Positions 16-12,521 of a DNA stretch of 28,364 nucleotides are shown here, piece by piece. The stretch is taken from the IMG/VR virus record IMGVR_UViG_3300038701_002066, positions 1-28,364 of that record. One strand, 5' to 3'. The translations under genes and the position numbers were made by a program. The stretch's first letter is position 1, and each line of letters begins with the position of its first letter. The DNA comes from a virus. The notes beneath the pieces were generated by a model that had not been told where the DNA came from, did no database searches, and saw nothing but the letters and a program-made list of their open reading frames with translations.

Positions 16-1416
16 TTGAGCGCAATTATCAATACCTCAAAGTCGGGGAGTTTTCCCTTGCTTGATGCTCTTGAGACCGCTCAGCGCGCTTTGAGCATGA
101 ACACCCCACAGGGCGATGCTGACGCTCTGTCGGTGTCTGACGAGATCCTTCAACACGAGCCGACAAATCCCCACGCCATGTATATGGCCGGGACCGCGCT
201 TTTCCGAATGAAGCAACACGGGCTTGCCGCCCTGATCCTGAATAGCGCTAGCCAGCTAAACCCTGGCGAAGCAGCGATCTGGAATAACCTTGCTATCTCA
301 CTGCGGGAATACCACCCGAAAGACGCGGTGGCTGTGCTTCGTAAGGCCATCGAGTGTGACCCAAGTCACATTGAGAGCCGCAAGAACCTTGCCGCATGTC
401 TTGGCCGGATTGGTCAGCGCGAGGAAGCTATTGAACTGAACCGCAAACTCAGGGAGGAACGCCCTGACGATCCGGACATCCCGTACAATCTGGCGCTTGA
501 TCTACTGCACACCGATAACTGGTCAGAAGCGTTCGAGGCCTATCAATACTCTGAAGGCAACGCACAGCGCAAAGTGCGCAATTACCACGCGGACAAGAAA
601 ACCCCGCGCTGGGAAGCATATGACACGGGCGAAACGGTTGTCCTGTATGGCGAGCAAGGGGTAGGTGACGAAATGCTTGCGGCGGCAAGCTATGCCGCGC
701 ACATCGCGCAGTATCCGTCTTGCCAGTTTATCATTGAGTGTGACCCCCGCCTTGAGAGCCTGTTCAGGCGCTCATTCCCTGACGCGACAGTCTACGGAAC
801 GCGCGACAAGGGTGAGCTGGAATGGCCCACAGAGGAGCAGCCAGATTGCGCACTGATCGGAATGGCAGCATTTGGCGAGCTGATAACAGCAGGCGTTGAA
901 GCCGCGCCCTGGCTCAAGCCTGACCCTGTCCTGGTCAAGATGTTTACAGATTTACTCGCCTCTTATGGCGATGGCCCCAAGATCGGCTTGAGCTGGTCTG
1001 GCGGGGCGAAGGATTGGGACCGCATGGAGCGGACCATTCCGATTGAAGAATTGGGGCCGATACTTGCTACACCAAACGCAACGATCGTATCGCTAGAGTA
1101 CAGTGACGGCCCCAAACCTGATGGCGTGTTAGACCTCTCATGGGCGACACGCAAAGGCGTTGACCTCGATGTCACGGCTGCCCTGATTGCGGCCCTGGAC
1201 ATGGTTGTGAGCGTCCCGCAGACGGTTTGCGACATTGCGGGGGCGGTTGGCACACCTTTGAAGGCGCTTGTGTCCCATAACCCGCCCTGGCGCTTCGCTG
1301 AGGCTGCAGGGGATGCCTGGATCTGGAAAGACGTGAAGACCTACCGCAAGAAAGCGGGCGGCAACTGGATGCCCGTGCTGGCGCAGTGCGCTCGGGACAT
1401 TCGGGAGGGATTGTGA
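16..1416 (+). CDS. TPR-repeat protein with GT-B glycosyltransferase-like C-terminal half
   Basis: A 466-residue protein. Residues about 45-180 form helical tetratricopeptide-like repeats (for example AAIWNNLAISL followed by AVAVLRKAIECDP, then RKNLAACLGRIGQREEAIEL). The C-terminal half resembles GT9/GT41-type GT-B enzymes: GLSWSGG, then DVTAALIAALDMVVSVPQTV, then DIAGAVGTPL. This TPR plus GT-B layout is known from O-GlcNAc-transferase-like and flagellin-modifying enzymes, so transfer of a sugar to a protein, perhaps a virion protein, is an inference. The frame is closed by TGA at 4-6, so the start is TTG 16 (AAGGAA just upstream, short spacing) or Met29 at 100. An acyltransferase and a second glycosyltransferase lie downstream, supporting a glycan module. 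The acceptor is unknown. Confidence 0.72.
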   Translation: MSAIINTSKSGSFPLLDALETAQRALSMNTPQGDADALSVSDEILQHEPTNPHAMYMAGTALFRMKQHGLAALILNSASQLNPGEAAIWNNLAISLREYHPKDAVAVLRKAIECDPSHIESRKNLAACLGRIGQREEAIELNRKLREERPDDPDIPYNLALDLLHTDNWSEAFEAYQYSEGNAQRKVRNYHADKKTPRWEAYDTGETVVLYGEQGVGDEMLAAASYAAHIAQYPSCQFIIECDPRLESLFRRSFPDATVYGTRDKGELEWPTEEQPDCALIGMAAFGELITAGVEAAPWLKPDPVLVKMFTDLLASYGDGPKIGLSWSGGAKDWDRMERTIPIEELGPILATPNATIVSLEYSDGPKPDGVLDLSWATRKGVDLDVTAALIAALDMVVSVPQTVCDIAGAVGTPLKALVSHNPPWRFAEAAGDAWIWKDVKTYRKKAGGNWMPVLAQCARDIREGL

Positions 1417-1799
1417 TGCCGTTACCAGAACGCCCGATTGATCGCCTGCTCAGAGAGCGAGAGCTGAAGAAAAAAGGAGCGTCCAACCCCTTCCTGCAGA
1501 TGCTTGATGCGCCGCAGGAGGCTCCAAATCCGTTTCTCGCAGTGCTTGATCAGTCTACCGCAGCACGGGCCGCTCAACTGGAGGCCTCACAAGCTCAACG
1601 CGGGCGTCGCGAGTTCAACAATATGGATTTGATGGGAGGTCCCGGCCAAGACTGGACAAACAGTTATTCTATGCTGCGCAATCAAGTCGGGACAGGTGAC
1701 CTCTCACAAGAGGATGCAAAGGCGATGATGGATGAAATTATGCGTAAAAACCGGGTCAACCGTGGCGCTAATCCATTCCTATACGGAGTGTCACCATGA
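1416..1799 (+). CDS. Small NPF-motif protein, probable virion component
   Basis: A 127-residue protein of no recognised family. I chose ATG 1416 because GGGAGG sits at 1403-1408 and the start overlaps the previous stop (TGATG). A basic, helical N-terminus (RLLRERELKKKG) is followed by three copies of a short motif: NPFLQML at residue 24, NPFLAVLD at 38 and NPFLYGV at 119, close to the C-terminus. The same NPF[LIM] motif occurs in three more proteins of the structural region (genes at 5397, 6372 and 7565), so this is probably a virion or assembly protein although it lies within the glycan module. The middle is polar and Gln/Arg-rich. The function is unknown; a shared binding motif is an inference. 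Confidence 0.75.
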   Translation: MPLPERPIDRLLRERELKKKGASNPFLQMLDAPQEAPNPFLAVLDQSTAARAAQLEASQAQRGRREFNNMDLMGGPGQDWTNSYSMLRNQVGTGDLSQEDAKAMMDEIMRKNRVNRGANPFLYGVSP

Positions 1800-2356
1800 T
1801 ACACCCAAAAGCAGAGGTGCACGATGACTGCACAATTGGTGAAGGTACGCGCATATGGCAATTCGCTTCCGTCATCCGCGGCGCTAAGATTGGCAAGGAT
1901 TGCAACATTGCTAGCGGGTCTTGCATTGATGGCAGTACTATTGGGGATCGCTGTACTATCGCGCATAATCTGGCTATGGGGCCGGGCTTCAAGGTTGGCA
2001 ATGACTGCTTCATTGCGCCGAATGTCACGTTCTGCAACGATGCTTGGCCACGCTCTCACAAAAAGGGTTTCGACGTTGAGCGCTATGACGACACGCACCA
2101 CGCGGTCATCATGGAAGACGGGGCAACGATAGGGGCCAATTCGGTTATCCTGCCGGGTGTCATTATTGGACGCGGCGCAATGGTTGCTGCGGGCTCTGTC
2201 GTGACAGTAAATGTCCCTGAAGACACGCTCTGGATGGGGTCTGGCGCGCTTCGCAAGATTTCTGGCGAACACATGAAGGACCGTATCCGCTTTGCACAGA
2301 CGGGCCTCGAAAAAACGACTGCATATATGGAGGCACGAGGCTTTGTCATTGCCTGA
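1796..2356 (+). CDS. Left-handed beta-helix (hexapeptide repeat) acyltransferase, WbpD/WlbB-like
   Basis: A 186-residue protein made largely of hexapeptide repeats (IGEGTRIWQ, IRGAKIGKDCNI, IDGSTIGDRCTI, VGNDCFIAPNV, IGANSVILPGVIIGRGAMVAAGS), the signature of left-handed beta-helix acyltransferases. The order of repeats, the HNLAMGPG turn, and the NDAWPRS segment followed by the GATIGANSVILPG block resemble WbpD/WlbB enzymes, which N-acetylate UDP-3-amino-uronic acids using acetyl-CoA. Start ATG overlaps the upstream stop by four bases (ATGA). Between two glycosyltransferase-like genes it probably completes a nucleotide-sugar used to decorate the virion or the host surface. The fold is certain; the sugar substrate is inferred. 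Confidence 0.85.
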   Translation: MIHPKAEVHDDCTIGEGTRIWQFASVIRGAKIGKDCNIASGSCIDGSTIGDRCTIAHNLAMGPGFKVGNDCFIAPNVTFCNDAWPRSHKKGFDVERYDDTHHAVIMEDGATIGANSVILPGVIIGRGAMVAAGSVVTVNVPEDTLWMGSGALRKISGEHMKDRIRFAQTGLEKTTAYMEARGFVIA

Positions 2357-2990
2357 GCTTGCTATTGTCTGCCCCTTCTGGGACACAAACAAGGAAAGCA
2401 AGAGCTTTTCGAGTATGTACACGGAAGAATGGGTGGAGCGGCTCTATCGGGGCTTCAAGCGACACTGCACGGTGCCGTTCGAGTTTATCTGCTACACGGA
2501 AAAGGAACGCACGTTCACTGAGCCGATTACGCAGATGCCCTTCAGCACTGAAACGCCAACTTACGAGAACTGCCTTGAGCCTTATGCGCTAGGGCGCCCA
2601 ATGATCCTGGTGGGCCTTGATACGATTATCACGGGCAACATCGATCATCTTGCAGAATACTGCCTTGAGAGCGGCAAGCTCGCGGTCCCTCGTGACCCGT
2701 TCTTTCCTCAGACAGTTTGCAACGGTGTGGCTTTGGTCCCTGGCGGCAGTAATTGGATATATGACCAATGGCTTGAGGACCGGGACAAGTTTACAGGCTA
2801 CACCAAGGACATGGACTTTATCCGATCCCTCGATACGGCTGTGATCGACGATTTGTTTCCGGGTGATGTTGTTTCATACAAAGGCCACGTAAAGCATTAC
2901 GGGCTTGGGGATGCGCGTATAGTCTACTTCCACGGGGAAGAGAAAGCCCATCAACTTAACCATGAATGGATTGAACGCGAATGGCGCTGA
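2349..2990 (+). CDS. Small GT-A-type glycosyltransferase
   Basis: A 213-residue protein starting PELAIVCPFWDTN. I favour TTG 2349 (GAGG at 2336-2339, eight-base overlap with the acyltransferase stop); another in-frame TTG at 2292 would add 19 residues. The segment ILVGLDTIITGNIDHL (Asp near residue 91) resembles the metal/nucleotide-sugar site of GT8-like phage and bacterial glycosyltransferases, although the second Asp of a DxD is replaced. The C-terminal YFHGEEKAHQL is the usual closing motif of such proteins. It is the third glycan gene in a row, immediately before the adaptor gene, so decoration of a virion protein or host glycan is plausible but unproven. Confidence 0.75.
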   Translation: MPELAIVCPFWDTNKESKSFSSMYTEEWVERLYRGFKRHCTVPFEFICYTEKERTFTEPITQMPFSTETPTYENCLEPYALGRPMILVGLDTIITGNIDHLAEYCLESGKLAVPRDPFFPQTVCNGVALVPGGSNWIYDQWLEDRDKFTGYTKDMDFIRSLDTAVIDDLFPGDVVSYKGHVKHYGLGDARIVYFHGEEKAHQLNHEWIEREWR

Positions 2991-3628
2991 CAAATCTAGG
3001 TGAACTCAAAACGGCGATTGCTACCCGCTTGAGCCGTTCAGACCTCACATCAGAGATTCCAGACTTTATCACGATTGCTCGGCACAAGATGATGCTTGGT
3101 GACTATGCCAATGACATTCCAGCGGTTCGGATTGATGACATGCTGACGGTCGAGGAGTCGCTGACCCTTGCAACGGGTGTGGCTGACCTCTCAGGCCTCG
3201 CAAACACCTATTTGCAGCGTCATTCGCTTTACATTGACGACACGGACGAGACGCCGCTCAATTTTATGCCTGTGGCGCGGTTCAACCGCCTTGGTAGCAA
3301 GACGCAGAGCGGGACACCGCAATTCTACACGGTGTACAAGAAAAAGCTCCAGGTGGCGCCGTATAGCAGCCAGGACATCAAATTCACCTACTATTCCGAA
3401 CCGACAGCCATGAGCGACGATTCAGACACAGATGTTATCTTGACCAAAGCGCCCCATGCTTACCTCTATGGTGCGGTGGCAGAGGCTTATGCCAAGATCC
3501 GTCAGTTCCAGAATGCGCAGCTCTACATGAGCCAGTTCCGGAGCGCGGTGATTTCGCTGAATGAGGACAGCGACAACGAAGAGTTTAGCGGCGACAGCAT
3601 CGCCATGTATGCGGATCGTGTTGCATGA
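2981..3628 (+). CDS. Phage adaptor protein (SU10/P22 gp4-like head-tail connector)
   Basis: A 215-residue protein. The opening LGELKTAIATRLSRSDLTSEIPDFI matches in pattern the phage adaptor family of short-tailed phages, in which a dodecameric ring bridges portal and tail. The later part, QFYTVYKKKLQVAP then DIKFTYY then YLYGAVAEAYAKIRQF, is also typical: a beta-rich middle and a C-terminal helical hairpin. Start ATG overlaps the glycosyltransferase stop by ten bases; the stop overlaps the next start by ATGA. Its place just before a beta-propeller-like nozzle candidate follows the P22 gp4 then gp10 order. Family placement comes from recognisable motifs, not from a search. Confidence 0.72.
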   Translation: MALTNLGELKTAIATRLSRSDLTSEIPDFITIARHKMMLGDYANDIPAVRIDDMLTVEESLTLATGVADLSGLANTYLQRHSLYIDDTDETPLNFMPVARFNRLGSKTQSGTPQFYTVYKKKLQVAPYSSQDIKFTYYSEPTAMSDDSDTDVILTKAPHAYLYGAVAEAYAKIRQFQNAQLYMSQFRSAVISLNEDSDNEEFSGDSIAMYADRVA

Positions 3629-5076
3629 CACCGCTTGGTGAATGGACCCCAGACCTGCCGCATGTGCTTGGCCCAAAGCTGATTGACGCAAAGAACGTCA
3701 TCCCGCATCCAGGCGGTTACAAACCGTTCAAAGACCTGACTAATGGCACCAATGCCCTGGCCGCAGAACCACGAGGCGGGGCGTCGTTCAGAGATAGCGG
3801 CCTGAACAGCCATATCTACGCAGGCTCGGCCACAAAGCTCTATGAGCTGGCAAATGATGGCTCCTGGACAGATCGGACACGTTCCAGCGGCGGTGACTAT
3901 GCGACATCCACGAATGAAACATGGGATTTCACGCAGTTTGGGGATCTCTGCATCGGTGTGAACTGGAACGATGATGTGCAGAGCATCAATATGAGTTCTG
4001 GGAGCAATTTCGCAGCGCTTGGCGGTTCGCCCCCGAAAGCCCGTCACATTGAGACGTTTAGCGATTTCGTCTTCCTCGGAAACACTGAAAACAGCGTTTC
4101 ACAGATCAAGTGGAGCGCAATTAACGACGCAACAGGCTGGACAGCCGGAACAGACCAATCTGACGAGCAGACATTTCCTGATGGCGGGGCGGTCCAAGGC
4201 TTTGCGGCGCATGATGTGCTGATCGTCTTCCAGCGGTTCAAGATTCGCCGTCTACAATATGTTGGCCCTCCGGTCATCATGCAGATTGATGTGATCTCTG
4301 AAGAAAAAGGCGCAATCGTAGACGGAGCAATCTGCTCACAGGGCGCAATCAGCTTTTTCCTTGCCAATGACGGGTTTTATGCGCTGGCAGGCGATAGTCT
4401 TTCACCCATCGGCGCGGACAAGGTGGACAAGTGGTTCTTTGCGGATGTGAACCAGAGTTACATTCACAAGATGACCAGCGAGGTCGATCCACAATCGAAA
4501 ATCGCTTACTGGTCCTACGCCTCGACAAGCTCAGTCAACGGCATTCCTGATACACTGCTGATGTATAACTGGACCGCTCAGCGTTGGGCTTATGCACGCA
4601 TCACGGTTGAGCGCCTGCTGAACATTTACGGGCTTGGCTATACGCTGGACGGCCTTGATACGTTGACCACGAACATTGATAATTTCGACATTCCGTTTGA
4701 TGATCCGGTTTTGACGGGCGGGACACTCCAGCTCAACGGCTTCGGATCGACGTACCAGCTCGGGCCATTCTCGGGCTCGGCATTAGAGGCAACCGTTGAA
4801 AGCGGGGATTTTGAGCTTGTGCCGGGGCGCCGGTCTTATCTGTCAGGCGTTGAGCCGGTCATTGATACGACAGCGGCAACCATCGCTGTGGCGCCTAAAG
4901 CGCGCCTTGGGGCAACAGCAAGCTATGACAGCGCCATGAGCCAGGAAGTCAACGGATACACTTCGCAGGACGCAACCGGACGCTATCACAGGGTCAAAAT
5001 GGGTGTCCCTGCGGCGTCGACATGGAACGATGCCAGTGCGTTCAATTTTGAAGTGGCGGATGACGGGCAGACATGA
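3625..5076 (+). CDS. Probable tail nozzle / DNA-stabilisation protein (beta-propeller-like)
   Basis: A 483-residue beta-rich protein that opens TPLGEWTPDLPHVLG and contains repeated Gly/Asp/Thr-rich strands with recurring W/Y-containing blades (WTDRTRSSGGDYATS, GVNWNDDVQSIN, FVFLGNTENS, VLIVFQRFKIRRLQYVGP, SFFLANDGFYALAGDS). Proteins of this length and texture directly after the adaptor are nozzle or packaged-DNA-stabilisation proteins (P22 gp10 type) in short-tailed phages. ATGA overlap joins it to the adaptor upstream and the small protein downstream. No catalytic motif is visible. Structural role is well supported by context; the exact tail part is inferred. Confidence 0.68.
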   Translation: MTPLGEWTPDLPHVLGPKLIDAKNVIPHPGGYKPFKDLTNGTNALAAEPRGGASFRDSGLNSHIYAGSATKLYELANDGSWTDRTRSSGGDYATSTNETWDFTQFGDLCIGVNWNDDVQSINMSSGSNFAALGGSPPKARHIETFSDFVFLGNTENSVSQIKWSAINDATGWTAGTDQSDEQTFPDGGAVQGFAAHDVLIVFQRFKIRRLQYVGPPVIMQIDVISEEKGAIVDGAICSQGAISFFLANDGFYALAGDSLSPIGADKVDKWFFADVNQSYIHKMTSEVDPQSKIAYWSYASTSSVNGIPDTLLMYNWTAQRWAYARITVERLLNIYGLGYTLDGLDTLTTNIDNFDIPFDDPVLTGGTLQLNGFGSTYQLGPFSGSALEATVESGDFELVPGRRSYLSGVEPVIDTTAATIAVAPKARLGATASYDSAMSQEVNGYTSQDATGRYHRVKMGVPAASTWNDASAFNFEVADDGQT

Positions 5077-5396: not shown

Positions 5397-5888
5397 ATGG
5401 ACTTTGGCGGTCTTTTAGAGGGACTTTTGGCGAACCGTAACAACCCGTTTATGGGCGGGGGCGGTTTGCCACCAATCAAAACGAACATGGCGCCACCTGA
5501 AAACTTCTGGGAGGGCAACAAGTTTCATATTGGCGCTCCTGGCATGCAGGCGACACCTCCGCCACAAGCGCAGCATCAGCAACCATCTCCTGCGCCGCAG
5601 CCTGTTCCGCCCACGGTGGGCGTCGGTGGCGGTGCTATGATGCCCGGTGGGACGCCTCCTAACCCGTTTATTCAGCCAGCCATGAGGGAGCAGGGCACAT
5701 TGACGCTTGGTGAGACTGTAACTACTCCGCCCAGCCTGCCTGCCACCATGCGCAACCGTGTCCCTTATATTGATCCGTCGACTGTCCAGCTCGCTCCAAG
5801 CGCTGCAGACCCTTATGACGACGGCACCGGCAAGAACGGCGTTCAGGGATACGGCAAAAATCCATTCATGAAGGGGATCATGCGATGA
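5397..5888 (+). CDS. Pro/Gly/Gln-rich NPF-motif protein
   Basis: A 163-residue low-complexity protein, unrecognised as a family. A short hydrophobic head (MDFGGLLEGLLANRN) leads into three NPF motifs: NPFMGGGG at residue 16, NPFIQPAM at 89 and NPFMKGIMR at 155, the last at the very C-terminus. Between them the chain is rich in Pro, Gln and Gly (PPPQAQHQQPSPAPQP) and likely disordered. The start ATG follows the preceding TAG directly, and the stop overlaps the next gene by ATGA, so it is translationally linked to virion genes. The terminal placement of NPF resembles the proteins at 1416 and 7565. I infer a flexible scaffold or linker for virion assembly. Confidence 0.68.
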   Translation: MDFGGLLEGLLANRNNPFMGGGGLPPIKTNMAPPENFWEGNKFHIGAPGMQATPPPQAQHQQPSPAPQPVPPTVGVGGGAMMPGGTPPNPFIQPAMREQGTLTLGETVTTPPSLPATMRNRVPYIDPSTVQLAPSAADPYDDGTGKNGVQGYGKNPFMKGIMR

Positions 5889-6385
5889 GCGAAACAATGC
5901 CCAAATTGGTGGTTCAGCAGGTTAAGCCAGATCACATCGCTATGGTCGCGCCGCATGTGCGCGAACTTGTCGAGAAGGCTTGTGCTTTCTCCAATGGCCG
6001 CTTTGATCCGGCTAGCGTGTTCGAGAACTGCGCAGGGCTGAACCAAACGCACAAATGGCAGCTCTGGGTGGTCTTTGACCCTGCTGGCGCGACAGATGAG
6101 AACTTCAAGGATCATGTGAAGGCGGTTACGGTAACCAGCCTTAACGTGTATCCGACAGGGCAAAAAGTAGCTGAAACCATCCTGATAGGCGGCAAAGGCC
6201 CGTCTGAAGAATGGCTTCATTATTTCGAAACACTGAAAGCATGGGCAAAGGCTAACGGGGCCAGCCGCATTCAGTTTATTGGGCGGCGCGGATGGCAGCG
6301 CTCGATGAAGTCACTTGGAATCAACTGGAAGCCAGTTGCAACCATGTTTGAGTGCGATCTGGAGGAAGCCGATGGGACAGTCTAG
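5885..6385 (+). CDS. GNAT-like virion-associated protein
   Basis: A 166-residue protein with the secondary-structure order of a GNAT acetyltransferase: an N-terminal strand and helix (VQQVKPDHIAMVAPHVREL), central strands WQLWVVFD and KAVTVTSLNVYP, a helix (SEEWLHYFETLKAWAKANG) and a C-terminal strand plus RIQFIGRRGWQRSMKSLG. The classic acetyl-CoA R/Q-x-x-G-x-G/A loop is not evident, so it may have lost catalysis. GNAT-like proteins ending in a GRRGW-type segment occur beside ejection-protein genes in T7-like phages, which fits the S74-ended and large ejection genes downstream. AAGGGG lies upstream of the ATG. Role in the virion is inferred. Confidence 0.6.
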   Translation: MSETMPKLVVQQVKPDHIAMVAPHVRELVEKACAFSNGRFDPASVFENCAGLNQTHKWQLWVVFDPAGATDENFKDHVKAVTVTSLNVYPTGQKVAETILIGGKGPSEEWLHYFETLKAWAKANGASRIQFIGRRGWQRSMKSLGINWKPVATMFECDLEEADGTV

Positions 6386-7565
6386 CGGCACTGAGACCGT
6401 AACCCAGAATAGCGAACCCTGGAGTCAGGCACAGCCTTACTTGCAGGACATTTTTAGCAACAGCCAGCAGCTTTATCGTCAGGGTCAGGAGTATTTCCCC
6501 GGCTCGACGGTGGTGCCGTTCTCTCCGCTTACAGAGCGCGGAATGCAGGGGCTTGAGCATCAATATAGCCAGACGAACCCTGTCGGCTATCAGACGGCCA
6601 GCAATACGCTGCACAATGTCGCTCAATCGGGCGGTAGCAATCCATTCATCAAGAATGTTCAGGATGCGGGTGCGGTGCAGAATGATGCGGGCGCAAATGT
6701 GCTGCAGTCGTTCGCCAATAATGGGCAGCAAAATCCGTTCCTTGATGCGCAGTTTGACCGGGCTGCTGAGCGGGTGCGGGATAACACGTCCGCCATCTTT
6801 TCCAAATCTGGCCGCTATGGCTCTACAGCGCACCAGGACGCGCTTTCTGACAGCTTGGGCGACATGGCCAACAACTTCTACGGACAAGCCTATGAGACTG
6901 ATGCAAATCGGCGCTTTGGCGCAGCGGAGGCGCTCGGCGCGCGGCAAGCGGGCGACATCAACCGAAACCTCGGGGCGCAAAGCACGGCGGCAGGGCTCAG
7001 CCAAGGGGCCAACAGCCAAGCCATGCAAGCCGCAGGAATGATGCCAATGCTGAACGAGTATGCGGGCGCCAATAATCGCGGCCTGATGCAACTCGGCGGC
7101 ATGCGTGAGCAGATGGCCGGACAGCAGCTGCAAGACGCCATGAACCGCCACAATTTCGGACAGAACGCCGGGTGGGATCTGCTCAACCGTTATAACTCGA
7201 CAATCCAGCCGATTGCGGGCCTTGGCGGATCATCTACAGGCACCCAGCCAAGCTCAGGGCCTAGCACACTGCAAACGCTCGGCGGACTCGGCATGATGGG
7301 GCTCGGCATTTTCTCAGACAGACGCCTGAAGCATGACATCAAGCGCATCGGCACACGGCTTGGGCATAATTGGTATTCATTCCGGTATAATACGGACGCT
7401 CCGGAGATTATCCGCGAGGGTGTCATGGCTCAGGACATTCTTGAGACCAATCCGGAAGCGGTGAGCGTAGACAGCTCGGGTTACTACAAGGTGAATTATT
7501 CGATGCTCGGGCTTGAGCCGACAGTACGCAATGCCCGCAAGTTTATTATGGAGGGGGCGCGCTGA
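6372..7565 (+). CDS. DNA-ejection/virion protein with C-terminal Peptidase_S74 chaperone domain
   Basis: A 397-residue protein. Start ATG 6372 is preferred because GGAGGA lies at 6361-6366; it overlaps the upstream gene by 14 bases. Residues 1-310 are helical, Gln/Ala/Asn-rich, as in podovirus ejection proteins (SEPWSQAQPYLQDIF, then EYFPGSTVVPFSPLTERGM), and include NPFIKNV at 90 and NPFLDAQF at 121. After a Gly-rich hydrophobic stretch the chain reads FSDRRLKHDI at 314-323, the conserved beginning of intramolecular-chaperone Peptidase_S74 domains, with cleavage expected before Ser315 and a matching tail (GVMAQDI, PEAVSVDSSGYYKVNYSML). S74 domains assist trimer folding and usually end tail spikes; ejection proteins with this tail are also known. 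Confidence 0.78.
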   Translation: MGQSSGTETVTQNSEPWSQAQPYLQDIFSNSQQLYRQGQEYFPGSTVVPFSPLTERGMQGLEHQYSQTNPVGYQTASNTLHNVAQSGGSNPFIKNVQDAGAVQNDAGANVLQSFANNGQQNPFLDAQFDRAAERVRDNTSAIFSKSGRYGSTAHQDALSDSLGDMANNFYGQAYETDANRRFGAAEALGARQAGDINRNLGAQSTAAGLSQGANSQAMQAAGMMPMLNEYAGANNRGLMQLGGMREQMAGQQLQDAMNRHNFGQNAGWDLLNRYNSTIQPIAGLGGSSTGTQPSSGPSTLQTLGGLGMMGLGIFSDRRLKHDIKRIGTRLGHNWYSFRYNTDAPEIIREGVMAQDILETNPEAVSVDSSGYYKVNYSMLGLEPTVRNARKFIMEGAR

Positions 7566-7843: not shown

Positions 7844-9202
7844 ATGGCAATGCCCGGTTATGACCTCTGGAACCCGCTGAAGCGCTACAGCTCTGCAATG
7901 CAGGGCGGTGCGTCACCAGCTGACCCGAAGAAAAAGAAGCCCTATTTTGAACGTGAAGGCATGTTTGGGCTCGACAAGGGAACCCTGATGATGGGCGGGC
8001 TCGGCTTGCTCGCAGGCAACCGCAACACAGGCCCACAAATGATGCTGCAAAGCCTTGCGCATGGCATGAACGCGCAAGGCGAGCGCCGCAAAGAGGCCGA
8101 GCGTCAAGCCAAGATGGACAAGTTCAAGCAGGGCCTGACCCCTGAACAGGCCATGTTGTTTGATGTTGCGCCAAATGCGGTTGCGGGTGGCATGGCGCAG
8201 GAGATGTTTGCGAAGCCTGCAAAGCGCGAGATCATCAAAGGCGCGGACGGCTATCAGTATTATGCGGACAACGGCCAGCGTGTGCTTGCTGATGTTAAGG
8301 CGCCTGGAAAAGCCCCTGCGACTGGAATGATTCAGGATGAAACCGGAAATTGGGTATATGACCCTGATTACCTGACGGGCCAAGAGCGTCTGCGCGCGGC
8401 TGGGCGGGATAGTGTCAGCGTGAGTGTCGGCGCGGATGGCGGTCGTTACAAGTCGCTTGCGGAGGTTCCGGTTGGTCAGCCAGTGCCGCTTGATTTGCTA
8501 CCAATCCCTGAGAGCAAGATTCCAGAAGACCGATACCCTGTGCGGGCGGACAACGGCGCGGGCTTCTCATTTGAAGTCATTCCTGGGTCAACCGCTGAAA
8601 GCAAGGCAGAATCTCGGAACAATCCGACCACGATTGATAGCCTGATTGGTTCCTACGCCACGCTGAACAAAAACAAGGCTATTCGTTCGCAGCAGAACAG
8701 TGCGGGCGAGAACTTTGGCGCCATGTTCTCAAAAACGCCTCCTGGGCGGTTTGTGGATGCGCTTGGCGGCGATGTTGGCAACGCAGATAACGACACAGCC
8801 CGCGATAACATCGAAGGCATTTCAATGAACATGCTGATGAAGATGATCAGCATGTCTGACGTGTCTGCACGCGCAATGGATTCTGACGCTGAAATGAAAG
8901 CATGGCTAGGCGCTATCAAGGGCGATCAATACGAATCCGCCCTGACCAAGCTGCATGTTCTCGATACCAGCTTTGGATCAGGTCAGGCGCTTGAGCGGGC
9001 CTATGCCAATAATCAAATCGATCGTGATACATACCTGTATGTAACACAGCGCGCCAACACTGACCCGATGGCTGTAGCGATGAAACAGCGCATGCAGCAA
9101 TATGCGGCGCTTGAAGAAAGTGTAGGAAATGAGAACCTGACAGATTCTGAGCGTCAGGAGCTGGAAGAACTACGAGCATGGCAGGCACAGAATGGCGGGT
9201 AA
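7844..9202 (+). CDS. Ejection-type internal virion protein
   Basis: A 452-residue mostly helical protein. The N-terminus has WNPLKRY and a basic run, then the GMFG..D...MMGGL.LL module (39-58) shared with the upstream gene, and a heptad-like helix (GERRKEAERQAKMDKFKQGL). A short beta segment EIIKGADGYQYYADNGQRV followed by MIQDETGNWVYDP resembles repeats in phage ejection proteins. The C-terminus, DSERQELEELRAWQAQNGG, is coiled-coil-like and echoes the start of the following protein. GGGAGGG lies before the ATG. Placement among large internal proteins supports a role in DNA ejection, as for P22 gp7/16/20 or T7 gp14-16; no enzymatic motif is seen. Confidence 0.68.
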   Translation: MAMPGYDLWNPLKRYSSAMQGGASPADPKKKKPYFEREGMFGLDKGTLMMGGLGLLAGNRNTGPQMMLQSLAHGMNAQGERRKEAERQAKMDKFKQGLTPEQAMLFDVAPNAVAGGMAQEMFAKPAKREIIKGADGYQYYADNGQRVLADVKAPGKAPATGMIQDETGNWVYDPDYLTGQERLRAAGRDSVSVSVGADGGRYKSLAEVPVGQPVPLDLLPIPESKIPEDRYPVRADNGAGFSFEVIPGSTAESKAESRNNPTTIDSLIGSYATLNKNKAIRSQQNSAGENFGAMFSKTPPGRFVDALGGDVGNADNDTARDNIEGISMNMLMKMISMSDVSARAMDSDAEMKAWLGAIKGDQYESALTKLHVLDTSFGSGQALERAYANNQIDRDTYLYVTQRANTDPMAVAMKQRMQQYAALEESVGNENLTDSERQELEELRAWQAQNGG

Positions 9203-12200
9203 TGAACGCGAAGAACTCGAAGCCCTGCGCAAGCGACGCCGTTTGGCTGAGCTTGAAGCCAAGGCGTCAGGTGGGCAGCAACAGCCTGTAGATCCAAACC
9301 TGCAAAATTTTGCTGTGCCTGATCGTATGGCGGGCTTGCCCATGCCGTTTGCGGGTGAGCCGACAGATTATATGACTGACAGCTTGTCAGGCTTCGGTGT
9401 TTCTGTTCCAAGTGGTGCGCCGGATTCGGTAAAGTCTGCGATGGTGGAAGGGGCCAGAAATGAACACAGAGATCGTCAAGCCAAAACGCGGCTCGCGGTT
9501 AAAGGTAAGCTCGCTTCTATTACTTCCCCTGGTCGTTTTGCATCCCGTGGCTTTGGTGCGCTTTCTGGCGATAGTGAGCGCGATGACATTCGAGCGCTTG
9601 AAAGAACTGGTGCTTTCGCGTCGGGCGTTGAAGACTTTGGAACATTCGGATACTCAGACGAACTTCACGGACTGACAGGCGGGCCAGAAGCGCTTTCTCG
9701 GCAACGAACTTCTGTAAAAGACGCTTGGGAACAGCACCCCGTTTCCACACTGGCAGGCGGCGCAACCACATTTGCGCTTCCAGGACAGCAGGTGCGCGGC
9801 GCATCGACTGGCGGCAAGGTTGCCAGCGGTATGCTGCGCGGCGGCATCTGGGGCGGCTTGTATGGCTCTGGATCAGGTGAAGACACCGCAGATCGATTTT
9901 TGAAGGCGGGCCTGTACGGCACAGGCGGTGCACTAACGGGCGGATCACTTGTTGCTGGTGGTCGCGGCGTTGACTTTCTTGCTCGCAAGCTTCCGGGCTC
10001 TGCTGAACTGCGCGCCCTGACAAGCAAGATTGTTGGAAACAAGAGCCTTACCACTGTAGAGATCAAAGCCCTTGAAGGGGCCATTTCAGAGGTTCAGACC
10101 GTCGCTCGGGCCAATGGCCGCAAGATTGATCGCGGCGCGGCCAGGAATGAGCTGATTGCAGCAATGCGCGGTGGACGCCCTAATGACTTCATGTTTGAGG
10201 CACTTGGCGAGGAAGGCGTAATTGCCGCTCAGGGCGCAGCCCAGCCAGGAATGGCGGGCGCAACGGACATAGCTGAGGCGCTCGGTCGGCGTGGCGAGGA
10301 ACAATATGCTCGCATTAACTCGGCGGTGTCGAAACTGGCGGGTGGCAAAAACATCTCCAGCAGTCTGGAAGAACTTGGCCGCGTCAAGAAGGACGAAGCG
10401 TCACCGATTTATGAGCAGGCCTATAAGGTGCCTGTGAATGTTAATTCGCCTGAGTTCCAGGCGGTAGAGTTAACACGTAGACTTCCTGAGTTTCAAGCTG
10501 GGCAAACGCGCGGTGAACGCATTTGGCGCCTTGAGACAAACAACCCAGACGGCAAGTTCAAGCAGCTGCCCTATTTCCGACAGATCCAGTACATCAAAGA
10601 AGGCGTTGATGATCAGATTGGCAGCTTAATCAAAAAAGGTGACCTAGCTCAGGCTGGAGCGCTAATAGGCCGCAAAAATGAGTGGCTTGGGCAGGTCGAT
10701 ACCATGAACCCGCTTTATGGTGATGCTCGCCAAATGTGGGCGGGGGCGGCAGCGCAAAAGAACGCGCTTGAGCTTGGCGAGAAGATGCTCGGAACGCCGG
10801 GCTACTCGCCTACAGGTGCGCGCTGGCGTGAGATTCAGGCGGCTTATGCCAAGATGTCAGAGGCCGAAAAGGTGGCGTTTTCTGTTGGCATGTATGATCG
10901 GGCTATTCAGATGGCTGGCGATCAGGCGGCGACGGCGACAGGAAATAGTGTTTCACGCCGCATGATGACCCCCAATACTGAGCAGCGTATTCGGGAAATC
11001 TTGCCCGCAGAGCAGGCCGATGAGTTCTTGGAGCTGATCAATCGCGAATATACGCAGCAAGTGACCGCAAATCGGGTGCTTCCAGCTGCGGGCTCAAAGA
11101 CCAGCAGCGCGATGAATGCTGTTGATGCTGTGCGAGCTGCAACGGGTGGCGCGCGCGCTGTCGCGGGCCAGCTGGCAGAGCCCCAGCGTCTTCTTGGGCG
11201 CGCTCAACAGGGCGCTCGCGAGTGGATGGAAAACAATGCGAAGCGGCAAGGCTCGCTTACGCAGTTCTTGTTGCGTCAGGTAGATGATCCTGAGCTTCAA
11301 AAGGCGCTTGGGCTGGCATCACCTGACCCGCAGCTACCGCCCCCATCAGGTGGCTCAGCACCCCCAGTTGCAAACACTTTCGATCAGCGCACAAGCCAAT
11401 TCCCGCGCACGTCAACCGCTGACGTGCCGGAAGCACCTTACTATCATGGCACTAGTCGGCCATTTGACGGCTCCCTCGATCCAAACGCCCCCGCGTCATC
11501 AGCAGATAACATGGCTCGTGGAGGTGTGTTCATGTCAAGCAATCGAGACGTGGCCTCACAATACGCTCAGGGACCAAACGCACGGGTTTTGCCGGTCGAT
11601 CCGAAAGTCAAAAACCCGATGACCACTGACATGGGCGGTGTAGAGGCAAATGATCAAGCAATTCAGCGCCTGATCGATGAGGCAAAGGCTGCAGGTCACG
11701 ACTCGCTGATCCTGCGAAACATCAAGGATGGCGCTTACAAGGATGCCCCTGTCTCTGATGTGATGGTCGTGTTCAGAGGTGAGGATGCGGTGATTGTGCC
11801 TGCGCCTGGAAGTGGCGCAAAGCCCGGCCTTATGGACCGCATCGCAGCCAAAGGAAAAGACAGTGAGCGAGGCAACATTGTAATTGATGGCCGCCCCATG
11901 CGCCGACAGGACGCAATGCGCGAGGCCAGATCAGCGGGCGGGGGTTCGTTCCCGACAGCTCCGGCTGCACCGGCTGCACGGCGCCCAGCGTCTACTGCTA
12001 TGGAGCAGGCGCGCGGAATAGGCGATAGCCCTTTGCTCCCATTGCTTCTAATGGGTGGCGGCGGAACTGCAGCAGTAGCGGGTATGAATCACTTCCTGAA
12101 CCGTCCTGATGCGGGCAATAAGGCGCAAGAGCCTGAAGCCTCACCACTTCAGCAGGCGATTCTGGGGCCTAGCCTGAAGCCTGACCTTAGCGGGCCTCAA

Positions 12201-12521
12201 CAAGCCTCTGTCGATCGCGCAAACACAGAAGCGAGACAGCAGGACCAAGCTCAGAGAGCTGAGTACTGGGACCACCTGAAATCCAGAGGCGACGGTAGCT
12301 CAACGGAGTGGAACCAGATCATGCAGGCGCGGGCCTCTGACCTGAAGGTTACGCCGGAAGATGCTGCGCGCGGGATTATCCGCAAGCGTCTACCATATGC
12401 CTATGATGTGCCCGTAAGCGTCCTCAAGGATGCGCCTGTTGAGGTCTTGATTAACGGCGAATGGCTTCCTGAAACCGCTCTGACAGTTCCCAATGAGCAG
12501 CGCGCATTAGAGCTACAGTAA
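9192..12521 (+). CDS. Large ejection protein with predicted ADP-ribosyltransferase-like domain
   Basis: A 1109-residue protein, by far the longest here. The head (NEREELEALRKRRRLAELEA) is a coiled coil; residues about 180-260 are Gly/Ala-rich and hydrophobic, followed by long helical regions typical of internal virion proteins. Residues about 750-865 differ: YYHGTS (750-755), GGVFMSSNRDVASQYA (777-792), VLPVDPKVKNPM, AGHDSLILRN (834-843) and DVMVVFRGEDAVI (856 onward). This order matches the ART-PolyVal-like ADP-ribosyltransferase fold (H in HGT, Tyr after the FxS strand, terminal VVF strand). A hydrophobic stretch near 944-965 may enter membranes. The inference is an injected host-modifying enzyme; the catalytic set should be confirmed by structure prediction. 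Confidence 0.75.
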   Translation: MAGNEREELEALRKRRRLAELEAKASGGQQQPVDPNLQNFAVPDRMAGLPMPFAGEPTDYMTDSLSGFGVSVPSGAPDSVKSAMVEGARNEHRDRQAKTRLAVKGKLASITSPGRFASRGFGALSGDSERDDIRALERTGAFASGVEDFGTFGYSDELHGLTGGPEALSRQRTSVKDAWEQHPVSTLAGGATTFALPGQQVRGASTGGKVASGMLRGGIWGGLYGSGSGEDTADRFLKAGLYGTGGALTGGSLVAGGRGVDFLARKLPGSAELRALTSKIVGNKSLTTVEIKALEGAISEVQTVARANGRKIDRGAARNELIAAMRGGRPNDFMFEALGEEGVIAAQGAAQPGMAGATDIAEALGRRGEEQYARINSAVSKLAGGKNISSSLEELGRVKKDEASPIYEQAYKVPVNVNSPEFQAVELTRRLPEFQAGQTRGERIWRLETNNPDGKFKQLPYFRQIQYIKEGVDDQIGSLIKKGDLAQAGALIGRKNEWLGQVDTMNPLYGDARQMWAGAAAQKNALELGEKMLGTPGYSPTGARWREIQAAYAKMSEAEKVAFSVGMYDRAIQMAGDQAATATGNSVSRRMMTPNTEQRIREILPAEQADEFLELINREYTQQVTANRVLPAAGSKTSSAMNAVDAVRAATGGARAVAGQLAEPQRLLGRAQQGAREWMENNAKRQGSLTQFLLRQVDDPELQKALGLASPDPQLPPPSGGSAPPVANTFDQRTSQFPRTSTADVPEAPYYHGTSRPFDGSLDPNAPASSADNMARGGVFMSSNRDVASQYAQGPNARVLPVDPKVKNPMTTDMGGVEANDQAIQRLIDEAKAAGHDSLILRNIKDGAYKDAPVSDVMVVFRGEDAVIVPAPGSGAKPGLMDRIAAKGKDSERGNIVIDGRPMRRQDAMREARSAGGGSFPTAPAAPAARRPASTAMEQARGIGDSPLLPLLLMGGGGTAAVAGMNHFLNRPDAGNKAQEPEASPLQQAILGPSLKPDLSGPQQASVDRANTEARQQDQAQRAEYWDHLKSRGDGSSTEWNQIMQARASDLKVTPEDAARGIIRKRLPYAYDVPVSVLKDAPVEVLINGEWLPETALTVPNEQRALELQ

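What the first reader, a model, noticed from the sequence alone, without database searches (positions are those of the whole stretch)
11439..11790. ADP-ribosyltransferase-like domain inside an ejected virion protein
Residues about 750-865 of the 1109-aa protein read YYHGTS ... GGVFMSSNRDVASQYA ... NPM ... AGHDSLILRN ... DVMVVF, the order of the ART-PolyVal-like fold. If ejected with the DNA, it would modify host targets from the first minute, as T4 Alt does, but here the enzyme is built into a large ejection protein. I have read this from motifs alone.
Basis: partly seen in the sequence, partly recalled or inferred. Interest (0 to 1): 0.75.

Follow-up and report, generated by a model that had tools for sequence, protein, structure and literature searches.

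The report
ADP-ribosyltransferase domain in phage ejection protein
A small short-tailed bacterial virus seems to carry, inside the last of the proteins it pushes into the host along with its DNA, an enzyme-like domain of the family that tags other molecules with pieces of NAD; the idea is already known from other phages, but this protein frame and its swapping between sister phages have, as far as I found, not been described.

Summary
In detail: the motifs lie in order at 11439-11786, aa 750-865 of the 1109-aa ORF 9192-12521, far above chance (36 bits against a window-free ART-PolyVal profile; best of 20,000 shuffles 8.5). Pfam gives ART-PolyVal at its cut-off for the domain alone. The AlphaFold model (pLDDT 85, pTM 0.80) finds ART-superfamily folds throughout its top 50 PDB matches. 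The host protein is the last of a LUZ24/PhiGT1-like ejection cassette. Its core (aa 135-682, phrog_5880) is nearly the whole protein in relatives; ART and C-terminal tail are extra. Of 34 relatives with an assigned slot protein only the sister L099 also has an ART there. L099 keeps ART, hydrophobic segment and tail, although its N-terminal two thirds is unrecognisably different while neighbouring virion genes are mostly 67-84% identical. H752 and D856 are in place; the strand-2 Tyr is Phe780, a common family variant. Precedents: virion-packaged polyvalent ARTs (2017), T4 Alt (works alike, another clade), and cyanophage A-4L, whose last ejectosome protein has YHGT...GTYFS and was matched by Foldseek. 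Catalysis, ejection and target are inferred, not shown.

The parts
9192..12521 (+). 1109-aa last ejection (internal virion) protein that carries the ART domain
   Evidence: ORF; phrog_5880 E=3e-36; gene order as in LUZ24-like podoviruses
9594..11237 (+). ejection core, aa 135-682 (phrog_5880), which in relatives makes up nearly the whole protein
   Evidence: I1_23 67-688 of 702 aa; Mae-JY35 34-650 of 655 aa
11424..11789 (+). ART-PolyVal domain, aa 745-866
11445..11447 (+). His752, motif I (HGT) in strand 1
11529..11531 (+). Phe780, motif II position in strand 2 (family Y 19 / F 14 / W 11 of 48)
11562..11564 (+). Tyr791, AxxY tyrosine (family Y 38 / F 8 of 48)
11700..11702 (+). Asp837 of the G[YHF]DG motif, 48 of 48 in the family alignment
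11757..11759 (+). Asp856, candidate acidic residue in strand 5
12030..12086 (+). hydrophobic Gly-rich segment aa 947-965, possible membrane helix, also present after the ART in L099
12345..12464 (+). C-terminal tail KVTPEDAARG...NGEW (aa 1052-1091), shared with L099
   Evidence: z = 7.5 against shuffles
2981..3628 (+). head-tail adaptor (SU10_adaptor PF24175)
3625..5076 (+). tail nozzle / P22 gp10-like protein (phrog_3287)
6315..7565 (+). ejection protein (phrog_4287 DNA ejection protein) with C-terminal S74 chaperone
7844..9202 (+). second ejection protein; first ~125 aa shared with L099, whose version matches phrog_2534 'released from the phage upon host infection'

Best explanation
The gene is the last (P22-gp16-slot) ejection protein of a LUZ24/PhiGT1-like podovirus, to which a C-terminal effector cassette has been added: linker, H-Y-[EDQ]-type ART of the ART-PolyVal kind, linker, one hydrophobic segment and a short conserved tail. 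Proposed working: the protein is packed in the head, leaves ahead of or with the DNA, its core helps to form the channel through the envelope, the hydrophobic segment sits in the inner membrane and the ART is presented in the cytoplasm at the point of DNA entry, where it uses NAD+ to ADP-ribosylate a host molecule before any phage gene is expressed. Shown: domain identity and predicted fold, gene order, add-on architecture, shared C-terminal cassette in a sister phage. Inferred: packaging, ejection, topology, catalysis, host target.
For: Fold and family: PF18760 at its cut-off for the domain alone; 36.3 bits to an independent profile versus 8.5 for the best of 20,000 shuffles; AF2 pLDDT 85.1, pTM 0.80; listed PDB matches are Xre-RES, tankyrase, PARP4, cholix, ExoA and 9k3a_B, prob 0.96-1.00; 61 viral matches at E<=1e-3, many named ART-PolyVal. 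Ejection slot: nozzle homologues in 59 phage records, same cassette order, phrog_5880 shared with last ejection proteins of I1_23 and Mae-JY35, equivalents called DNA ejection / DNA transfer / virion structural protein. Add-on: none of the 14 relatives' slot proteins scanned has PF18760; 33 relatives' slot proteins have median 607 aa against 1109. Retention: L099 has its own ART and the same downstream segment and tail although the N-terminal part is unrelated by BLAST and hhalign. Precedent: A-4L ORF27, the 9k3a_B chain of a pre-ejectosome, has YHGT...GTYFS at aa 1425.
Against: Whole-protein Pfam score is below the cut-off; the strand-2 Tyr is Phe and the family's QIKS motif after strand 5 is lost, so the domain may be weak or inactive. 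Foldseek E-values against PDB are only about 2e-3, TM about 0.5. The only sister ART shares 28% identity and its own model did not find ARTs in the PDB (helical insert dominated the matches). One hydrophobic segment with a mean hydropathy of 1.39 is weak evidence for a membrane helix. No virion proteomics for this phage.
Confidence: 0.62

Rival explanations
1. Pseudo-ART: the domain keeps the fold but not catalysis and serves as a structural or ligand-binding (NAD or ADP-ribose) module of the ejection protein.
For: Phe instead of Tyr in strand 2, QIKS motif lost, score just at the Pfam cut-off. Pseudo-ARTs have been proposed elsewhere (PMC7955679).
Against: His752, Y791, D837 and D856 are all kept; Y/F/W are interchangeable at the motif II column in the family (19/14/11 of 48), and L110 with 86 bits to PF18760 also has Phe there. 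Two sister phages keep different ARTs in the same slot, which suggests selection for the activity rather than for one fold surface.
Confidence: 0.2
2. The domain is enzymatic but does not modify host proteins: it degrades NAD+, modifies nucleic acid or blunts an NAD-based host defence.
For: ARTs of this superfamily have diverse substrates (PMC9503650); the best PDB match is the Xre-RES toxin fold; RES toxins deplete NAD+ (own knowledge).
Against: RES ranks first by a hair; PARP-type protein-modifying ARTs follow in nearly all ranks. The authors of the ART-PolyVal definition postulate host proteins as targets. Nothing here tells targets apart.
Confidence: 0.13
3. The protein is a virion or assembly component that is not delivered to the cytoplasm; the ART acts in the producing cell or only inside the virion.
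For: No direct ejection data for this phage; DNA ejection roles are inferred from gene order and PHROG names.
Against: Same slot as P22 gp16 / T7 gp16-type proteins, which reach the inner membrane and cytoplasm (PMC8954989); preceding gene of L099 matches 'released from the phage upon host infection'.
Confidence: 0.05

Closest known systems
ART-PolyVal (PF18760), ART domains of polyvalent proteins, prototype in Roseovarius Plymouth podovirus 1 N4-like vRNAP (PMC5512222)
   Same: HGT motif, GxxF strand 2, AxxY, NP, G[YH]D, strand-5 acid; ART in a large virion-cassette protein
   Different: Here the carrier is a 1109-aa phrog_5880 ejection protein with one recognised enzymatic domain, not a multi-enzyme giant or vRNAP; Phe780 for Tyr; QIKS lost
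Anabaena phage A-4L ORF27 (1717 aa), chain 9k3a_B of the cyanophage A4 pre-ejectosome
   Same: ART-like YHGT...GTYFS motif in the C-terminal part of the last ejectosome protein; matched by Foldseek to the window model
   Different: No detectable sequence relation of the rest (phmmer); no Pfam hit; which residues are resolved and whether its authors named an ART could not be checked
Last ejection proteins with phrog_5880 (Rhizobium phage RHph_I1_23, Microcystis phage Mae-JY35)
   Same: Homologous core, same gene slot
   Different: They end where the core ends; no ART
T4 Alt
   Same: Presumed strategy: ART packaged in the head and injected with the DNA
   Different: Separate enzyme of the R-S-E clade, not fused to an ejection protein; the window domain is of the H-Y-[EDQ] type
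PhiGT1_5 and L020 ART proteins of LUZ24-like podoviruses
   Same: ART in a head-cassette protein of related phages
   Different: Free-standing protein (in L020 with a GNAT-like part) between portal and nozzle genes, other ART subgroup

Membership tests
ART-PolyVal (PF18760) | Pfam score at or above the curated cut-off (31.2 bits) | tested here: inconclusive
   25.3 bits for the whole protein, 31.2 bits for the isolated domain
ART-PolyVal (PF18760) | His in strand 1 (HG[TS]) | tested here: met
   H752 in predicted strand 750-754
ART-PolyVal (PF18760) | Tyr in strand 2 | tested here: inconclusive
   Phe780 in predicted strand 779-782; the family sample itself has Y 19, F 14, W 11 of 48
ART-PolyVal (PF18760) | Asp in strand 5 | tested here: met
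   D856 in predicted strand 854-860; same column T 15, D 11, N 6 of 48; the exact register is alignment-dependent
ART superfamily | Split beta-sheet ART fold | tested here: met
   AF2 pLDDT 85.1, pTM 0.80; ART-superfamily PDB matches throughout the top 50
ART superfamily | NAD-dependent transferase activity | not testable with these tools
   needs purified domain
Polyvalent proteins | Two or more disparate effector domains in one virion-linked polypeptide | tested here: inconclusive
   only one recognised enzymatic domain plus an ejection core
Podoviral last ejection protein (P22/T7 gp16 slot) | Gene position after nozzle and other ejection genes, before tail fibre genes | tested here: met
Podoviral last ejection protein (P22/T7 gp16 slot) | Homology to proteins of that slot | tested here: met
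   phrog_5880 shared with I1_23 and Mae-JY35 slot proteins
Podoviral last ejection protein (P22/T7 gp16 slot) | Present in virions and released on infection | not testable with these tools
   no proteomics for this metagenomic phage
T4 Alt family | R-S-E active-site motif | tested here: not met
   strand 1 carries H752, H-F-D set

The most novel reading that the evidence does not exclude
The last ejectosome protein of small podoviruses is a general delivery slot for enzymes that act at the DNA entry port, its N-terminal channel part and its C-terminal ART being exchanged between sister phages, so that even small podoviruses carry T4-Alt-like host takeover at time zero.
Probability: 0.3. Interest if true: 0.68.

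Novelty: new variant of a known kind. Interest (0 to 1): 0.47.

Why it matters
A 2022 survey puts ARTs in only about 3% of podoviruses (PMC9503650), and a review of ejection proteins names peptidoglycan hydrolase and DNA binding, with no mention of ribosyltransferase (PMC8954989). An ART in the ejectosome itself, here and apparently in A-4L, would give small podoviruses a way to change the host before transcription starts, and makes a simple test possible: does the DNA-entry machine also deliver an enzyme? If it proves inactive it would still show that ejection proteins collect enzyme folds.

Tried and rejected
Full-protein and domain scans of viral contigs found no homologue of the window's own sequence; tblastn of the ART in phages gave one weak hit, of the whole protein in plasmids none, and 289 genomes of the class of G038 (the Alphaproteobacteria MAG that holds L109) none, so residue conservation could only be judged across the wide ART-PolyVal family. 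That family sample was drawn with the pattern PL[VL]VYHGT, so its H, G, T and Y columns are conserved by selection of the sample and are not counted as evidence. phmmer of the window ART against PDB found nothing useful; a profile search gave only sub-threshold ART toxins and RNA 2'-phosphotransferase. The first alignment with L020 and L092 misaligned beyond strand 2 and was not used. Foldseek of the L099 ART model matched helical hairpins, not ARTs: inconclusive. 'L099 simply has a diverged copy of the same protein' was tested: N-terminal and core parts give no convincing similarity (the core reaches z=3.1 against shuffles but below the best shuffle), ART and tail do. A chance motif was rejected by shuffling.

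Full report
What is there. The window is a 28,364-base linear virus record from IMG/VR. The gene at 9192-12521 codes for 1109 aa. All motifs of the finding lie in the stated order between nt 11439 and 11774. Pfam ART-PolyVal PF18760 matches aa 750-820 with E=2.8e-5 in the whole protein (25.3 bits, below the cut-off) and with 31.2 bits, exactly the cut-off, when the domain is given alone. A profile made from six ART-PolyVal domains without the window scores the domain 36.3 bits; the best of 20,000 shuffles scores 8.5. It is therefore not chance.

Fold. I fetched 80 ART-PolyVal loci from viral contigs, aligned 47 of their domains plus L099 with the window and predicted the structure: mean pLDDT 85.1, pTM 0.80, strands at aa 750-754, 779-782, 798-804, 809-813, 838-845, 854-860 and a helix at 821-833. 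Foldseek against the PDB lists ART-superfamily proteins throughout its top 50: Xre-RES, tankyrases, PARP4, cholix, exotoxin A (best E=1.8e-3, prob 0.96-1.00, TM about 0.43-0.51) and, in rank 4, chain 9k3a_B of the cyanophage A4 pre-ejectosome. Against viral models 61 matches have E<=1e-3, several named ART-PolyVal, TM up to 0.69.

Active-site residues. The ART-PolyVal definition asks for His in strand 1, Tyr in strand 2 and Asp in strand 5 (PMC5512222). The window has H752, F780 and D856, plus the AxxY tyrosine Y791 that corresponds by position to the second, stacking Tyr of PARPs (PMC7955679; this equation is my inference). In the family alignment the strand-2 column is Y 19, F 14, W 11 of 48, the AxxY column Y 38, F 8, the G[YHF]DG aspartate 48 of 48, and the D856 column T 15, D 11, N 6. 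H, G, T and Y of the first motif were fixed by the way the sample was drawn and prove nothing. The window lacks the family's QIKS motif after strand 5. Reading: ART fold near certain, activity likely but open.

The carrier. The cassette is adaptor (PF24175), nozzle (phrog_3287), small proteins, ejection protein with S74 chaperone (phrog_4287), second ejection protein, then the ART-bearing gene. The nozzle has relatives in 59 phage records, among them LUZ24-like Pseudomonas, Rhizobium, Paracoccus, Microcystis and Pelagibacter phages, mostly with the same order; PhiGT1, with annotated injection genes, is of the same kind. aa 135-682 match phrog_5880 (E=3e-36); the same family covers 67-688 of 702 aa in RHph_I1_23 and 34-650 of 655 aa in Mae-JY35. 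Hence aa 683-1109 are an addition. None of the 14 relatives' slot proteins scanned has PF18760; over 53 records only G000, L020, L092 and L099 match at all, and only the window and L099 in the ejection slot. Slot proteins of 33 further relatives have a median of 607 aa; one (LUZ24-like DL54, 1056 aa) is nearly as long without a PF18760 match. Many viral contigs are fragments, so these counts are of those that reach the slot.

The sister phage. L099 is 84% identical in the nozzle, 73% in the first ejection protein and mostly 67-81% in the other neighbouring virion genes, but its slot protein (1294 aa) is not recognisable as a relative over the N-terminal two thirds. It carries its own ART-PolyVal at aa 879-1044, which scores 28.3 bits against the profile free of L099 and window. 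Downstream both proteins have one hydrophobic segment (947-965; 1187-1205), a SPLQQAILG / NPLSQILG motif and a tail VTPE..ARG...NG[EQ]W (tail z=7.5). Either the front part was exchanged and the back kept, or two ARTs were taken up independently; both mean that the combination is under exchange. AF2 of the L099 domain is confident (pLDDT 82.5) but its Foldseek matches are caught by a helical insert, so its identification rests on sequence.

How it may work. T7 gp16 and P22 gp16-type proteins are packed in the head, leave early, and part of T7 gp16 is placed in the cytoplasm with C-terminal membrane helices (PMC8954989). By analogy the ART, which lies between the core and the C-terminal hydrophobic segment, would be shown to the cytoplasm at the DNA entry port and would use NAD+ to tag a host molecule before phage transcription. 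Every step of this is inference from position and fold.

Comparison with the known. Polyvalent proteins with ARTs, including an N4-like podoviral vRNAP thought to be injected, were described in 2017 and a T4-Alt-like role was proposed then; most ART-PolyVal hits that I fetched lie in very long ORFs, commonly above 1500 aa. A-4L ORF27 is the 9k3a_B chain; it has YHGT...GTYFS at aa 1425 of 1717 and no Pfam hit. The Foldseek table does not tell which residues matched, so that the matched part is this region is an inference. T4 Alt works alike but belongs to the R-S-E clade. So the principle is known; new are the compact phrog_5880 ejection protein as carrier and the exchange between sisters. I found no paper on it in ten searches, but the library lacks most subscription journals.

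Noticed in passing
window 16-2990: TPR protein, hexapeptide-repeat transferase and a glycosyltransferase-like ORF lie directly before the head-tail adaptor; the TPR and glycosyltransferase-like ORFs are kept in L098 and all three in L099. Looks like a glycosylation set inside the structural cassette (MW202512 has TPR, FkbM and GalT-like genes in a similar place).
   Followed up: partly
window 5885-6385: 166-aa protein in the slot annotated elsewhere as RimL/GNAT acetyltransferase-like 'head assembly protein' (PhiGT1_16) or 'aminoglycoside acetyltransferase' (KLEP18-1 gp18); 67% identical in L099, 81% in L098.
   Followed up: no
L008 10033-10590: Microcystis phage Mae-JY35 has an 'Appr-1-p processing' (macrodomain) gene directly after the nozzle gene, i.e. 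an ADP-ribose-handling protein in the same virion cassette.
   Followed up: no
L020 70-1629 and L112 4918-6081: A different ART (L020: with a GNAT-like part) sits as a separate protein among head genes of related podoviruses, 42% identical between the two.
   Followed up: partly
L092 2232-2537 (L106 1480-1743): Short ART-like ORF of about 87-102 aa right after the portal gene, apparently a truncated or minimal ART.
   Followed up: no
L205 20116-25269 (A-4L ORF27): ART-like motif YHGT...GTYFS in an ejectosome protein with a deposited structure and no Pfam annotation.
   Followed up: partly
L113 5378-10327 (Pseudomonas phage F116): F116 has an ART-PolyVal match inside a 1649-aa late protein next to a 2129-aa 'methyltransferase', just before the lysis genes; another likely ejected polyvalent protein.
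   Followed up: no
L098 10267-11907: The first ejection protein of the sister phage L098 has long repeat-like insertions (NPFxNQ..., SRNLSGLxxAAGL...) absent from the window and L099.
   Followed up: no
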